DNA of 64,000 bases from Parasphingopyxis marina (lineage in GTDB: Bacteria; Pseudomonadota; Alphaproteobacteria; Sphingomonadales; Sphingomonadaceae), in NCBI RefSeq assembly GCF_014237875.1, contig NZ_JACJVJ010000001.1:794501-858500 (forward strand). The letters are read 5' to 3'. The notes beneath the pieces were generated by a model. That model saw only the letters and a program-made list of their open reading frames with translations, made no database searches and had not been told where the DNA came from. The translations under genes were made by a program, and so were the position numbers. Position 1 is the stretch's first letter. The number at the start of each line of letters is the position of its first letter. Positions 2,415-8,709 of this stretch are shown in pieces.

Positions 2415-2539
2415 TTCGTCAGAGTTTCCCGCAAGCAACGTTCTGATAAACAACTGGGTCCGTTCCGGCGCGATCCTTTACCGCCCGTCAATCCCCGCCG
2501 CCCTAGCCTTGGCCGCGGAGCAGCAGGGGGAGGCGGATC

Positions 2540-2734
2540 ATGGCGATACGGTTTCGGGCAATTCTTCGTCGCGGCAGGGCCCGCGCCGGCCTCTGGCGAA
2601 ACGAAAAGGGCGCGACGGCGATCGAATATGGCCTGATCGCCGCGCTGATCAGCCTCGCCGCGATCATCGCCTTCACGACCCTGGGGCTGAACCTCGGCAA
2701 TATCTTCAACACGATCACCAACGCGATGAAATAG
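2540..2734 (+). CDS. Flp family type IVb pilin
   Basis: A 64-residue prepilin. A short basic leader ends in NEKGATAIEYGLIAALISL, with the prepilin peptidase cleavage site after the Gly and the Flp hallmark Glu-Tyr inside the start of the hydrophobic segment. A strong GGGGGAGG lies before the ATG. Flp pilins form the Tad pilus used for surface attachment. No tad/cpa assembly or prepilin peptidase gene lies in the window, so this is an isolated pilin copy. The AT-richer block starts after it. Confidence 0.92.
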   Translation: MAIRFRAILRRGRARAGLWRNEKGATAIEYGLIAALISLAAIIAFTTLGLNLGNIFNTITNAMK

Positions 2735-3412
2735 CCGCGCGGTGCCTCGCCCGTCCCGGCTGACACCGGTTGACACGGAACGGGGGTAGTTGTGGGGGTG
2801 CGACGCGGCGCAAATCCCGGAAATCCGCGAAACTCGGAAAAACGGGTGTGACCTTTTCGGCGGCGCAAATAGGATTTGGGCGAGGCGCGCGGGGAGGGGT
2901 GTTTTCTTGGCGAAGAAGGGCGGCACAGGCTGGCGTAAAGGCGAGGACGCGGCGCATGGCGGGGAGTATGCCACAAGGCGGGGGCTGTAGGACAGGGAAT
3001 AGGATTGGGGCGATCCGAGAAACGCGCGCTCGCGGAGTTGAAGGGGATGGGGTAACAGGACCGGCGCCATCCCGGCGCCCCGGCGTGGACGCTGTTGGGG
3101 ATGGTCGATGCGAACCCGAAGGCGGCGCTGGATTTGATCGAGCGGACGGCGAGCTATTAGTGCACTGTCACCGTAATCAGGGCACCTCGCCCGCATGTGA
3201 GAGGAAGGCTGGTACATGGTCCACAAAGGCGACCCCGAACATGTGATCTGCGCGAAGCTGAAGCGGCTAATCGCGGAGTACGAGGAGAGAGAGTAGCGGT
3301 GAAGCCGGCCCGCCCCTACCGACTTCGGGCCCTCGTGCCGCGCGAACGGCCCTTAGGCGAGCGCTGGTGTGTGGGCTGCCAACAGCCATTAGGTTTGGAC
3401 GGAGCGCTAAGC
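2735..3412. other. 678-base gap with no convincing gene, probably decayed or island-edge DNA
   Basis: Several short open frames occur on both strands but none shows a recognisable domain. Two look like gene remnants. One frame ends LLGMVDANPKAALDLIERTASY before a stop near 3160. A 26-codon ORF (3216-3296, MVHKGDPEHVICAKLKRL...) has GAGAGGAAGG upstream. A short element, GGCGCAAAT, occurs twice (near 2814 and 2863). The last ~110 bases form the candidate ncRNA listed separately. This is likely the downstream edge of the accessory block; I cannot assign a function. Confidence 0.4.
3300..3412 (-). ncRNA. Candidate DRT3 noncoding RNA with CACACAC tract
   Basis: Read on the minus strand directly after the stop codon of the downstream reverse transcriptase gene. 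A stem AGCGCU/AGCGCU (3403-3408 with 3360-3365, alternatively CUUAG/CUAAG plus CGCU/AGCG with a bulge) encloses a hairpin GGCUG-UUGG-CAGCC (3387-3374) and, unpaired after it, CACACAC (3373-3367). Further hairpins GCCG/CGGC (3350-3337) and GGCCC/GGGCC (3331-3307) follow. As I recall, DRT3 systems contain an ncRNA with a conserved ACACAC that templates poly(GT) synthesis, and this is the only such tract near the two genes. The ends are guesses; no promoter or terminator was identified. Confidence 0.55.
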
Positions 3413-5479
3413 TCAGTATACGTCTCGATAGCGCTTGGCGTCCAGTTCCTTTGACAGATTAAAGCCAGACCAAGTAGTGAACCAATTTTTAGAGACTGCG
3501 CTCAGCTTGGCCAGCTCACCCGCAGTCAGGCCGAAAGTGGCTGCAAATGTGCTTTTTTCGGCGTCGTCAATATAGGGACAAGCGATGGCATCGAGAAAAA
3601 TGAGAACTACTTCAGTGTCTTGACGCGCGTATGCCGCCTTATCGGTGAGAACTCTCGCGATTTCCTCAATGAGGAATCTCCGCAATTTATTGTACTTCGT
3701 GCGACGCCTAACATAAAGCAGAGTAACCGTTATCGTAAGATGAGTAAGCGGCTGCTCTCTGCACAATAGACCTGTCTTGTCTTTGCTAATATTAAGATGT
3801 TGGCACAGAGAATCCTCGTCAAGCCAATATTCTCGACCTAGTTCTCCCAAAGCGGTTAAAAGATAGAGTGTCTCAACTTCTCTATAGTTCGAGACCTGAT
3901 TTTTACGAAGCTGATGAACGATATTGTCGTGAGCATATTTAAAAACATGATGTCTGAGTTCAAGCGCAATTCGCACTCTACGCAATGCCCTGGACACCAC
4001 CGAAACTATGCGGGCCAACCGGATAGACAAGTTCACGCGTGGTGCTGCAGCGTAAATGAAAAATGCAAATTCCAGAATGTTCTCAATTGTATCGATCAGG
4101 CGTTGCTCAGATCGATGGCCTTCGCTGGAGCGAACGAAGTCGGCAAGCAGGCGGTCTATCGTAGATTCAAGAAGCGCAAAGGTGTAATTACCGACCTCCG
4201 GATACGACACCGATGCCGATTTCAGGATCGTCTTGTATCCAATGATCAGTTCGCGGCTCCGCGCATTCGAGACAAACTCGTATACTGGCTCCTCATGTTC
4301 CTGTTCGTCTTCGACCAACTTAAAGTCTGAGGAAACACTTTTTGAAATTAGATCACTAATCGCACTCTTCGCGATCGTGATTTCGGTTATGACTGGTTTT
4401 TCATAGAGTTTTGTCTTGGATCTGTTAAGGCTAAGTTTAACGCCTGAAAGGTGATGACCGATAACGTCGATTATCACTTCACAATCCACGTCTGAATTGA
4501 AGAATATATAATAGTCATCGACATAACGGAAAATTTCGTAGTCATGTCGATGCAAGAGTCCGTGAGCGATTCGGAGCTCTTTCTCGACTTCAACATCAAC
4601 CGATTGAAGAATAATTTCTGCGAAAATACGGCAGAACTCGGGGCCGATTATAATTCCATTTGTTTCGGCATGATTGAGATTTTGCATTAACTTGTCAAAC
4701 ATTGCCGGAAACGTCGATAGAGACCCCTTGAGATCGTCCTTCACGGGGCGCTTACCAAGCACCGCCCAAGGCAGGGAATGTGTATAAATGCTATCGAAAC
4801 ACTTAGAGACGTCGGCCTGCATCATTGCATCGAAACGCTTCTCGGCTCTATGGTATCTAAAAGACTCAAAGAACTTGAAAACATTATTTACGATGCGATA
4901 AGCAAAGAATGAGCCAATTTGATCGTATTCTTTTCCGACTTCTTCAAAATTTTCTTGTTTCGCGAGCAACCGCTCATGCATACGGTCACGATGATTCGAA
5001 TATCTTGCAATGGAATCGGGATGTCGAATAGAAAACGGACTTCGTCTTGCATAATATATTATGCTATCTGAGTAATCGTTATAGAAGTTTGCAACGAGAA
5101 TCTGACTAAACGGATGCGGAATTGAAAGTTTGCGCGATTCGGCCTCTCGGTGACAGATTTCAAAGGCAAACGGCTCTTTGACAGTATCAACGTTCGAAAA
5201 TTCAAGATTTCGATATGTTCGAACCTTGCCGAACTTGGTTTCGTGTGAGGAATTGACGACAGTCGAACGATCAATGCCTGTGAGAATATAGATCGCATCG
5301 TCGATTCGGTCGTCGCTGCATTCCCAGCGAATTACATTCCCTATAATCTGCACATCATGGGCGCGGAGCAACTCGAAGATATGCCGGTTACTAAACGAGG
5401 CGGGAAGCTCAAAGGGCAGCGTGTCCGAGAGGATCGGTCGCTGCCGCCTGGAATGAAGCCGCTCCCGTTTACGCTTCAT
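3413..5479 (-). CDS. drt3b: Reverse transcriptase, Drt3b-like (UG8 type), antiphage defense
   Basis: A 688-residue protein with a complete reverse transcriptase core: QADVSKCFDSIY (catalytic Asp about 223), GIIIGPEFCRIFAEII (about 275-290) and FRYVDDYYIFF with YVDD at 319-322. A long N-terminal part (LPFELPASFSN near 21-31) precedes the core and a roughly 320-residue helical C-terminal part follows it, with no known nuclease or maturase domain. ATG 5479 overlaps the end of the upstream RT gene by 11 bases, implying translational coupling. An in-frame ATG at 5638 would overlap far more and is less likely. Size and pairing with a second RT match the Drt3b partner of DRT3. Base composition is clearly lower in GC than the neighbours, suggesting transfer. 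The UG8 label is inference from architecture. Confidence 0.78.
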   Translation of the reverse strand: MKRKRERLHSRRQRPILSDTLPFELPASFSNRHIFELLRAHDVQIIGNVIRWECSDDRIDDAIYILTGIDRSTVVNSSHETKFGKVRTYRNLEFSNVDTVKEPFAFEICHREAESRKLSIPHPFSQILVANFYNDYSDSIIYYARRSPFSIRHPDSIARYSNHRDRMHERLLAKQENFEEVGKEYDQIGSFFAYRIVNNVFKFFESFRYHRAEKRFDAMMQADVSKCFDSIYTHSLPWAVLGKRPVKDDLKGSLSTFPAMFDKLMQNLNHAETNGIIIGPEFCRIFAEIILQSVDVEVEKELRIAHGLLHRHDYEIFRYVDDYYIFFNSDVDCEVIIDVIGHHLSGVKLSLNRSKTKLYEKPVITEITIAKSAISDLISKSVSSDFKLVEDEQEHEEPVYEFVSNARSRELIIGYKTILKSASVSYPEVGNYTFALLESTIDRLLADFVRSSEGHRSEQRLIDTIENILEFAFFIYAAAPRVNLSIRLARIVSVVSRALRRVRIALELRHHVFKYAHDNIVHQLRKNQVSNYREVETLYLLTALGELGREYWLDEDSLCQHLNISKDKTGLLCREQPLTHLTITVTLLYVRRRTKYNKLRRFLIEEIARVLTDKAAYARQDTEVVLIFLDAIACPYIDDAEKSTFAATFGLTAGELAKLSAVSKNWFTTWSGFNLSKELDAKRYRDVY

Positions 5480-6812
5480 AGCGCCACGCTTCCACAATCG
5501 TGGCCAATGTCCGCGTATTGTATCTTGCAAATCGACGCTCGATGAATCCGCGGACGAAAGAAAATTCATCAATGCGATCTTGAAGCGCGGCGCTTTGCAA
5601 GAGCGAAACCTTATGCGCGAGGTAGGCGTCCAGTCCATTGAGTTGAGCCCAACTCGTTAGATGAGAGTTGTTGAAATAGATGCCCGTGTATGCGTGACGT
5701 TTGTTGTTAATAAGTCTCGTGTTGCTGGTCATAAATTTGATTCTCGCCGAAAGGAGCCGGGCAGCTCCCTTCTGATCGTATACGGCCTGGCGATAGTAGG
5801 CGGCGAAGGCACGATCAATCCTGCTCCGATATCTTGCGAGCTTTTGAGATCCGATTGTCACCTCACAGCGCCCACCGGACACAGAGAAGTGATACCCAAG
5901 GTAGTCAAATTGAAAGGCAAGACCCGGTCCGGTCGACCCTGCGCGTGTCTTTGTAGCATTCAATGTCAGGTGCTTTTCGGTCAGAATGTCCGAAATTTCA
6001 TCAACGTAAGATGCGGTGTCATCACCAGCAGTGCGTGCAAAAATGATGATCATGTCATCAACGTATCGGGCATAAAATATGACGCGCGGGAGCTGTCGAA
6101 TCTTCTCGTCGATCGAGCGCATGTATAGCTCGGACAAAAACGCGCTAACCCCTAAACCTCTTGGTATTCCCGTGGCGGAATTGGCTAAACTACCATACGA
6201 CGATAGGGCCTGCTTTATATATCTCTTCGATCCGTGGCTAAGTAGCTGATCTGAGTCTATCTCTGATATCAATGTTTGTCTGTTTATATTGTCGTAGAAA
6301 GCCGTGACATCGGCGCGTATACAAAAGTGTGAAAAAGAATTGTTTAGAGCATCATAAACTTGGCTAATTATTGCTCTTCGATTACCGGCTTGGAGCTTAT
6401 AAAGTCGGCTAATGTTTCTTTGGATTTGCTTGCCAATAAAATAGGCTCGGGGATCGGATGGCAGTGTAAACAGCGCTGTGCCTTTTGGACCGATACGCGA
6501 CTCAAGTTGAATTTGATAATCTGAGAGGATGGCTTGCGCCACTTCCTCCATTCTCGCCTCGACCAGATCTTCCCTGTTTTCTCTCGCCAAGCGGAGTCTT
6601 TCGCGCAGCGGTTGAACGATCAAATTCAATGCGTCAGGCGATGCTGTTGAGTTTGTTCTCCGTGCTACGCGGATGGCGGCTGACGCAGCGGTGATGCGCG
6701 CGCTAGCGTCGACAAGATCCGGGAAAAAGGCGCGATCAACATTGCGGCCTCGCCGATTCTCGACATCGTAAATTCGACGGAAGTTTTGTGCAGAAAATGT
6801 CTGGTCAAGCAT
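5469..6812 (-). CDS. drt3a: Reverse transcriptase, Drt3a-like (UG3 type), antiphage defense
   Basis: A 447-residue reverse transcriptase and the first gene of the two-RT operon. It opens with LDQTFSAQNFRRIYDVENRRG, followed by RADVTAFYDNI (Asp 168 and 174), GIPRGLGVS (215-223), RYVDDMIIIF with YVDD at 250-253, and the thumb-side FDYLGYHF (303-309). No group II maturase, primase or integrase domain is attached. The start lies 76 bases after the lepA stop on the same strand, so read-through from lepA or a promoter in that gap could drive it; I see no good -10/-35 pair. Together with the overlapping larger RT and the CACACAC-bearing RNA candidate this fits a DRT3 system, in which Drt3a copies the ncRNA template. 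GC is low compared with the neighbours. Confidence 0.8.
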   Translation of the reverse strand: MLDQTFSAQNFRRIYDVENRRGRNVDRAFFPDLVDASARITAASAAIRVARRTNSTASPDALNLIVQPLRERLRLARENREDLVEARMEEVAQAILSDYQIQLESRIGPKGTALFTLPSDPRAYFIGKQIQRNISRLYKLQAGNRRAIISQVYDALNNSFSHFCIRADVTAFYDNINRQTLISEIDSDQLLSHGSKRYIKQALSSYGSLANSATGIPRGLGVSAFLSELYMRSIDEKIRQLPRVIFYARYVDDMIIIFARTAGDDTASYVDEISDILTEKHLTLNATKTRAGSTGPGLAFQFDYLGYHFSVSGGRCEVTIGSQKLARYRSRIDRAFAAYYRQAVYDQKGAARLLSARIKFMTSNTRLINNKRHAYTGIYFNNSHLTSWAQLNGLDAYLAHKVSLLQSAALQDRIDEFSFVRGFIERRFARYNTRTLATIVEAWRYEA

Positions 6813-6888
6813 CGGTAGCCCCGATGTACGACCGTAAGGTACTTAAAGATCTTTGCAAGCTCGGTTGCGCCCAAGTAAATATTGGCGC

Positions 6889-8709
6889 CTACTCCTCCCC
6901 CATCTTCAGCGCCGCAATAAACGCCTCCTGCGGAATACTGACATTGCCGTACTCCCGCATCTTCGCCTTGCCCTTCTTCTGCTTCTCCAGCAGCTTCTTC
7001 TTGCGGGAAATATCGCCGCCATAGCATTTCGCGGTCACGTCCTTGCGCATTGCGCCGATGGTTTCGCGGGCGATGATCTTGCCGCCGATCGCGGCCTGGA
7101 TCGGGATCTTGAACAGGTGGCGCGGGATCAGGTCTTTGAGGCGCTCGCACATATGGCGGCCGCGGGTTTCGGCGGCGTCGCGGTTGACGATCATGCTGAG
7201 CGCGTCGACCGGATCGCCGTTGACCATGATCTCCATCTTGACGAGATCGCCCTCGCGGTGGCCGATCGGCTCATAGTCGAAGCTCGCATAGCCGCGCGAG
7301 ATGCTCTTCAGCCGGTCGTAGAAATCGAACACCACCTCGTTGAGCGGCAGTTCGTAGATGATCTGCGCGCGGCCCGCGACATAGGTGAGCTGCTTCTGGA
7401 TGCCGCGCCGGTCCTGGCACAGTTTGAGGATGGGCCCCAGATATTCGTCGGGGACGTAGATCGTCGCCTTGATCCAGGGTTCGTCGATGCTGGCGATCTG
7501 CGTCACGTCCGGCATGTCGGCCGGGTTGTGGAGTTCGATCGTCTCGCCCTTCGAAAGATGGATCTTGTAGACGACGCTGGGCGCGGTGGTGATCAGGTCG
7601 AGATCGTACTCGCGCGTCAGCCGCTCCTGGATGATTTCGAGGTGCAGCAGGCCCAGAAAGCCGGCGCGGAAGCCCTGGCCGAGCGCCGCGCTGGTTTCCA
7701 TCTCGAAGGTGAAGCTGGCATCGTTGAGGCGGAGTTTCGCGATGCTTTCGCGCAATTTCTCGAAATCCGCGGCGTCGGCGGGGAACAGGCCGCAGAACAC
7801 GACCGACTGGACTTCCTTGTAGCCGGGCAGCGCCTTGGCGGCGGGGTTCTTCACCGTGGTGATGGTATCGCCGACCGCGGTATCCGCGACTTCCTTGATC
7901 TGCGCGGTGATGAAGCCGATTTCGCCGGGGCCGAGCTCTTCCAGCTGCTCGATCTTGGGGCGCATGCAGCCGACCCGGTCCACCAGATGCTGGGTGCCGT
8001 TCTGCATGAACTTGATCGCGAGCCCTTTTTTGAGGACGCCGTCGATCACGCGGACGAGGATGACGACGCCGAGATAGGGATCGTACCAGCTGTCGACGAG
8101 CATCGCCTTGAGCGGCGCGTCGCGGTCGCCGGTCGGCGGCGGGATGCGGGCGACCAGCGCTTCGAGGATATCCTCGATGCCCTCGCCGGTTTTCGCGCTG
8201 GCGAGCACGGCGCCGCCCTCCTGCCAGGGGCCGGTGGCGGGGATGCCGATAATCTCCTCGATCTCCTCCTTCACGCGCTCGGGTTCGGCGGCGGGGAGGT
8301 CGATCTTGTTGATGACCGGCACGATCTCGTGATCATGCTCGATCGACTGGTAGACATTGGCGAGCGTCTGCGCCTCCACGCCCTGCGCGGCGTCGACCAC
8401 CAGCAGCGCGCCTTCGCAGGCGGCGAGGGAACGGGAGACCTCATAGGCGAAATCGACATGGCCGGGCGTGTCCATGAGGCTGAGCTCATAGGTCTCGCCA
8501 TTCTTGGCCGTATAGTTGAGCCGCACGGTCTGCGCCTTGATGGTGATCCCGCGCTCGCGCTCGATATCCATATTGTCGAGCACCTGCTCGCTCATCTCCC
8601 GCTCGGTCAGCCCGCCGGTCGCCTGGATCAGCCGGTCGGCGAGCGTGCTCTTCCCGTGGTCGATATGCGCGATGATCGAAAAGTTGCGGATTTTGGAGAG
8701 GTCGGTCAT
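6889..8709 (-). CDS. lepA: Elongation factor 4 (LepA), ribosomal back-translocase GTPase
   Basis: A 606-residue translational GTPase that binds stalled or mistranslocated ribosomes. G motifs are intact: [14 protein letters not shown] near the N-terminus, DTPGHVDF and NKIDLP. The C-terminal LepA-specific end ([19 protein letters not shown]...) is present and full length, so the accessory block has not damaged it. The start [15 protein letters not shown] is the family's usual one. It ends 76 bases before the Drt3a-like gene on the same strand. Confidence 0.97.

What the first reader, a model, noticed from the sequence alone, without database searches (positions are those of the whole stretch)
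3413..6812. Two overlapping reverse transcriptases forming a DRT3-type antiphage system
Two complete RT genes (447 and 688 residues, both with YVDD and intact catalytic Asp) overlap by 11 bases in one operon of lower GC than its surroundings. Neither has maturase, integrase or Cas domains. A small RT followed by a large RT with a long helical C-terminus is the Drt3a (UG3)/Drt3b (UG8) layout. DRT3 is rarely described from sphingomonad-like chromosomes as far as I know.
Basis: partly seen in the sequence, partly recalled or inferred. Interest (0 to 1): 0.9.

Follow-up and report, generated by a model that had tools for sequence, protein, structure and literature searches.

The report
DRT3 antiphage system with compact ncRNA

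Summary
Window 5469-6812(-) is Drt3a and 3413-5479(-) Drt3b, overlapping by 11 bp; both pass NCBIfam's equivalog cut-offs. A covariance model built from 40 other loci finds it at 82.6 bits, E 4.4e-18, once in the genome. The Drt3b residues reported to select nucleotides and prime synthesis in E. coli (E22, R71, R241, Y666; PMC13174585) are kept as E24, R116, R284, Y688. It most likely makes poly(dTdG)/poly(dCdA) duplex that halts infected cells. The host has AddA and no RecB over cut-off, so the RecBCD checkpoint would have to be AddAB here (inference). The E. coli Drt3b of PDB 26cz and a close relative of 9z6y fall in the other clade, with the template 101-261 nt after Drt3b; in this clade it lies 24-75 nt after it, in a different, compact RNA. 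New member of a known kind; possibly a distinct variant.

The parts
5469..6812 (-). drt3a: UG3-type (Class 2) reverse transcriptase, 447 aa, YVDD at residues 250-253; expected to copy the ncRNA ACACAC template into poly(dTdG)
   Evidence: NF041747 356.9 bits, cut-off 200; PADLOC Drt3a 373.5 bits; phmmer to PDB 9z6y_A Drt3a E 5e-25; D168, D252, D253 in 89 of 89 aligned Drt3a
3413..5479 (-). drt3b: UG8-type (Class 1) reverse transcriptase, 688 aa, with long helical C-terminal part; expected to make poly(dCdA) without nucleic-acid template, primed from Y688
   Evidence: NF041748 647.6 bits, cut-off 350; PADLOC Drt3b 605.9 bits; phmmer to 26cz_A E 1.3e-70 and 9z6y_H E 1.2e-59; E24, R116, R284, YVDD, Y688 kept; AlphaFold2 model mean pLDDT 87.6
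3279..3412 (-). DRT3 ncRNA, compact class: P1, P2, template, P3, P4
   Evidence: covariance model R1 (40 loci, own locus left out) 82.6 bits, E 4.4e-18 in the window; single match in the genome; 25 pairs on the model alignment, 19 with changes on both sides, 0 of 500 shuffles as high on five measures
3367..3372 (-). ACACAC template of the ncRNA, 40 nt after the drt3b stop codon
   Evidence: read; ACACAC within 400 nt after Drt3b in 122 of 127 homologous loci
3403..3408 (-). ncRNA P1, 5' strand (AGCGCT; model pairs 3407-3404)
3360..3365 (-). ncRNA P1, 3' strand (AGCGCT), directly after the template
3374..3387 (-). ncRNA P2 hairpin (GGCTG/CAGCC) directly before the template
3301..3326 (-). ncRNA P4 hairpin with conserved loop UAGGRGCGG (loop sequence read)

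Best explanation
A complete three-part DRT3 defence system. Shown here by sequence: Drt3a, Drt3b, and a structured ncRNA with an ACACAC template between P2 and the 3' strand of P1. Inferred from the E. coli work (PMC13174585): Drt3a copies ACACAC over and over into poly(dTdG); Drt3b, held as an oligomer, starts DNA on its C-terminal tyrosine Y688 and adds dC and dA in turn, with E24 as the dA gate and R284 as the dC switch; the two strands anneal to repeat dsDNA. In uninfected cells a dsDNA exonuclease keeps the product low; phage proteins that block that nuclease let it build up and the cell stops growing. In this host the nuclease would be AddAB rather than RecBCD (inference; AddB was not searched).
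For: Profile margins. PDB matches to both solved Drt3b sequences and to 9z6y Drt3a. Aligned to 26cz, E24, R116 and R284 sit at E22, R71 and R241, and Y688 is the C-terminal Tyr. Among 113 distinct Drt3b: clade-I label (template at 24-75 nt) E24 86 of 87 and R116 86 of 87 (one gap each), R284 87 of 87, Y688 87 of 87; other label R284 26 of 26, E 20 and D 6 of 26, Tyr 24 of 26. ncRNA found by a model that did not contain it and only here in the genome; covariation above every shuffle and every slid control. ACACAC within 400 nt after Drt3b in 122 of 127 loci; of the 118 with a Drt3b ORF of at least 550 aa and an ACACAC, shuffled downstream sequence gave a mean of 9.1 and at most 19 (these 118 were picked for having the motif, so the fair count is 122 of 127).
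Against: No expression, product or phage data for this locus. The minimum-energy fold of the single ncRNA sequence is no more stable than shuffles (z 0.67) and does not show P1; P1 in this clade is short and a duplex test against shuffles was not significant (3 of 79 at <= 5/100, median z -0.3), so P1 rests on covariation in 2 of its 4 pairs. Rfam has no match (one chance match far below its gathering score). Promoter and terminator scans are at chance level. Foldseek's best PDB match is DRT6, then DRT4; neither 9z6y nor 26cz is among the 50 rows listed (library to April 2026). The mechanism was worked out in the other clade.
Confidence: 0.88

Rival explanations
1. A DRT3 system of a different working variant: same two enzymes and repeat product, but a minimal RNA that scaffolds a different Drt3a:Drt3b:RNA assembly, or a different trigger and nuclease guard.
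For: Trees separate this clade from the one of the solved Drt3b proteins with support 1.0; the template lies 24-75 nt after Drt3b against 101-261 nt; model R1 matches 58 of 60 loci of this clade given to (7 of them in its training set) and 0 of 31 other loci; AddA instead of RecB.
Against: Template, its place beside the 3' strand of P1, catalytic and gate residues are shared, so function may be the same; R1 was trained on this clade only, so failure on the other clade is partly expected. No reciprocal model was built.
Confidence: 0.4
2. A degenerate or silent DRT3 relic carried on a foreign island.
For: Low-GC insert; promoter-like matches only at chance level.
Against: Both frames intact, all tested catalytic, gate and primer residues kept, ncRNA with all four helices and template kept.
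Confidence: 0.07
3. Another RT class (group II intron, retron, diversity-generating element, CRISPR RT or another UG group).
For: Weak cross-hits to group II (75.7 bits, cut-off 300) and retron (40.8, cut-off 235) models.
Against: All far below cut-off; both proteins far above the Drt3 cut-offs; paired order and ncRNA fit only DRT3.
Confidence: 0.01

Closest known systems
EcoDRT3 of Wang et al. 2026 (PMC13174585; Drt3b in PDB 26cz)
   Same: Drt3a then Drt3b then ncRNA; ACACAC template; gate residues E22/R241, R71, C-terminal priming Tyr (alignments)
   Different: Other Drt3b and Drt3a clade (L194 matches 26cz over its full 667 aa at 1492.7 bits); template 128 nt after Drt3b at L194 against 40 nt here; their ncRNA model came from EcoDRT3 relatives (section 22 read)
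Drt3 complex of PDB 9z6y/9z6z (probably Deng et al. 2026, Science; that paper is not held, attribution is mine)
   Same: Both RT families match
   Different: Its close relative L193 (884.8 bits over 650 aa) falls in the other clade with the template 125 nt after Drt3b
E. coli GYB01 drt3a/drt3b (L076) and the Yersinia vastinensis locus (L184)
   Same: Same clade and same ncRNA class (R1 43.5 and 45.3 bits)
   Different: About 37% Drt3b identity to this one for L076; I know of no experiment on them
Parasphingorhabdus sp. locus L109
   Same: Closest Drt3b found (50%; 51%), same ncRNA class (83.6 bits)
   Different: Other genus, MAG contig

Membership tests
DRT3 (Drt3a) | UG3 RT over the curated NCBIfam cut-off | tested here: met
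   356.9 bits, cut-off 200
DRT3 (Drt3b) | UG8 RT over the curated NCBIfam cut-off | tested here: met
   647.6 bits, cut-off 350
DRT3 | Drt3a and Drt3b adjacent in one operon | tested here: met
   11-bp overlap, same strand
DRT3 | ncRNA downstream of Drt3b with ACACAC template in a loop | tested here: met
   3279-3412(-), template 3372-3367
DRT3 | ncRNA of the EcoDRT3 covariance family | tested here: inconclusive
   Wang et al.'s model is not held; R1, built on this clade, matches 0 of 31 loci of other clades; no model of the other class was built
DRT3 (Drt3b) | nucleotide-gate residues E22, R241 and neighbour R71 | tested here: met
   E24, R284, R116
DRT3 (Drt3b) | C-terminal priming tyrosine (Y666) | tested here: met
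   Y688, last residue
DRT3 | YVDD active site in both RTs | tested here: met
DRT3 | poly(dTdG)/poly(dCdA) product, oligomeric complex, phage defence | not testable with these tools
   needs biochemistry and phage assays
DRT3 | placement in UG3/UG8 on a UG/Abi-wide tree | not tested
   only DRT3-internal trees were built; profile margins stand in
Group II intron / retron RT | curated model over cut-off | tested here: not met
   best 75.7 of 300 and 40.8 of 235 bits

The most novel reading that the evidence does not exclude
This locus belongs to a DRT3 clade that is a distinct variant: a minimal ncRNA of about 115-135 nt (in L148, L157, L173 and L190 even the hairpin before the template looks absent, read by eye) scaffolds and templates Drt3a with far less RNA than in the solved complexes, and in its AddAB hosts the product is guarded by AddAB instead of RecBCD.
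Probability: 0.4. Interest if true: 0.6.

Novelty: new member of a known kind. Interest (0 to 1): 0.4.

Why it matters
DRT3 is one of the very few polymerases reported to write a fixed DNA sequence from amino-acid side chains. This member keeps every tested gate and primer residue at about 30% Drt3b identity to the solved ones, so it is a far-off test case for which residues are needed. Its compact RNA gives a simpler ncRNA for structure work, and an AddAB host would show whether the RecBCD guard is general.

Tried and rejected
Rejected: group II intron, retron and other UG classes. Chance ACACAC. A first genome-contig scan with the single protein gave no relative; the alignment scan worked. 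Single-sequence folding did not reveal the ncRNA; covariation did. A P1 duplex test was significant for 19 of 24 loci of the other class but 3 of 79 of this class. Rfam gave nothing. No flanking repeat of the lepA 3' end, as seen in relatives, was found in the own window at E 1e-3; direct repeats in 2500-7100 look like chance. Foldseek confirmed only the Class 1 UG RT fold (DRT6, DRT4, UG15, AbiK). Literature: PMC13174585 read as abstract, sections 5, 6, 7, 10, 22, 37, legends part 1 and found passages; PMC13314766 passages only; PMC13213688 part 1 of 2; Deng et al. not held; Gao 2020 and Mestre 2022 only as cited there. That this clade has no experiment in print rests on searches of a library that lacks most subscription papers; the supplements were not open.

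Rows dropped: one search left out five loci with identical Drt3b and, through, four with short ORFs (L167, L168, L169, L211) and the five without ACACAC (L206, L208, L210 short ORFs; L213, L214 divergent). One search used 113 Drt3b and, of these, 89 with a Drt3a over 350 aa. L175 carries the 'other' label by template distance (98 nt) but groups with this clade in the Drt3b tree; its Drt3b ends early. R1 was built from 40 of the 79 non-redundant loci of this class, the most divergent ones left out by choice.

Full report
Observation. They are the only RVT_1 matches of the genome at E <= 0.001, carry no other Pfam domain at E <= 1 and form the lowest-GC 3.4-kb stretch of the window (0.471). The genome is 3.31 Mb in 5 contigs.

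Identity. NCBIfam equivalogs Drt3b 647.6 bits (cut-off 350) and Drt3a 356.9 bits (cut-off 200); PADLOC agrees with wide margins. phmmer matches the solved Drt3b proteins 26cz (E 1.3e-70) and 9z6y (E 1.2e-59) and the Drt3a of 9z6y (E 5e-25).

The missed part. Wang et al. (PMC13174585, sections 5-7) report a ncRNA downstream of Drt3b with an ACACAC template. Here ACACAC lies at 3372-3367(-), 40 nt after the Drt3b stop. In 127 homologous loci, ACACAC occurs within 400 nt after Drt3b in 122; the five without are three with short Drt3b ORFs and two divergent ones. I aligned 40 such RNAs without the own one. RNAalifold found 26 pairs, 19 with compensatory changes. Counted as 25 pairs, 94.4% of cells pair, 123 cells change on both sides, and none of 500 shuffles reaches any of the five measures; slid controls pair 38-50%. 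The model R1 then found the own element at 3279-3412(-), 82.6 bits, E 4.4e-18; the next window match has E 0.73. It is the only match at E <= 0.001 in the genome.

Protein template. In the 26cz alignment, E22, R71 and R241 of EcoDRT3b fall on E24, R116 and R284; the C-terminal Tyr is Y688. Over 113 distinct Drt3b: with the label of this ncRNA class E24 and R116 86 of 87 (one gap each), R284 and Y688 87 of 87; with the other label R284 26 of 26, E 20 and D 6, R116 23 of 26, second Asp 25 of 26 (one Asn), Tyr 24 of 26. Wang et al. report that E22D keeps partial activity.

Two clades. The Drt3b tree (113 sequences) splits off 25 of the 26 loci whose template is 98 nt or more from Drt3b, with none of the other label, at support 1.0; the exception L175 is a Drt3b that ends early and groups with this clade. 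The Drt3a tree (89 sequences) splits 19 of 19 with support 1.0 (FastTree local support). First ACACAC positions are 24-75 nt in one class (92 loci) and 101-261 nt in the other, L175 apart at 98. L194, which matches 26cz over all 667 residues, and L193, close to 9z6y, belong to the other clade. R1 matches 58 of 60 loci of this clade given to (missed: L035, L175; seven of the 60 were training loci, and eight matches have E above 0.0001) and 0 of 31 others. This suggests a compact ncRNA class, but R1 was trained on one class only and I built no model of the other.

Mechanism. By the E. coli work: RNA-templated poly(dTdG) by Drt3a, protein-primed and side-chain-gated poly(dCdA) by Drt3b, annealing to dsDNA, abortive infection when RecBCD is inhibited. 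Steps shown here are the presence and conservation of the parts; product, assembly and defence are inferred. The own genome has the alphaproteobacterial AddA (1062.5 bits, cut-off 860.75), and the RecB model stays below cut-off, its best match (116.7 of 696.05 bits) lying inside that AddA gene, so an AddAB guard is my inference.

Spread. Drt3b over cut-off in 7 of 396 genomes of the order, 5 of 385 of the class and 2 of 398 of the phylum, own genome counted in each; these samples overlap in part. Plasmids: 7 records with at least 80% of the query covered. Phage records: none with 80%.

Setting. DRT3 sits between lepA (6889-8709) and the GST gene (1761-2414), with a short pilin-like frame between (my reading). 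Of 9 other genomes of the genus, 8 gave a lepA match long enough to fetch. Right after lepA, four have low-GC stretches (G1118, G1122, G1124, G122), two do not (G316, G1119), and two are unclear (G1120 mixed, G1123 near a contig end). Cargo there: Vsr with a C5 methylase (G1122), PADLOC candidate PDC-M66A/B and an HNH protein (G1124), RadC and an HNH protein (G122), a weak PDC-M41A match (G1118). So the place looks like a small defence-cargo hot spot, filled with DRT3 here.

Verdict. A genuine, complete DRT3; known kind. The added value is the ncRNA, the kept gate residues at low identity, and a clade with a compact RNA that, in the papers I could see, has not been studied. Interest 0.4.

Noticed in passing
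L101-L108 (genus relatives), window 6813-6889: Downstream of lepA is a variable, often low-GC cargo site in this genus; in G122, G1119 and G1120 copies of 60-81 bp of the lepA 3' end lie further downstream, as if elements carry a copy of it. Cargo looks defence-related in at least three genomes. One paper search gave nothing on point by its titles.
   Followed up: partly
L213 3382-3389, L226 3144, L224 3391, L222 3406; L223 and L214 intergenic: A third, divergent DRT3-like group (Lactiplantibacillus plasmid, Erysipelothrix phage SE-1 and others) lacks ACACAC after Drt3b; in 4 of 6 loci GTGTGT lies on the Drt3b strand in the stretch before drt3b, between it and drt3a (annotated or listed for L213, L222, L224; assumed for L226), with shared context GATGATGTGTGT in L213 and L226, GACGTGTGT in L224 and GATGTGTAT in L223. 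E and R gate residues are kept in L213 and L214. A moved or inverted template, or an antisense RNA, is possible.
   Followed up: partly
window 3201-3296: A 31-residue reading frame on the plus strand (EEGWYMVHKGDPEHVICAKLKRLIAEYEERE) ends just beyond the ncRNA and looks like the tail of a lost gene; not searched.
   Followed up: no
L034 (E. coli plasmid CP083496.1): drt3b is annotated as two pieces, while the near-identical chromosomal copy L076 has one intact gene; a frameshift or a sequencing error.
   Followed up: no
L044, Drt3b motif YVDN: One Drt3b of the other clade has YVDN instead of YVDD with the first Asp kept.
   Followed up: no
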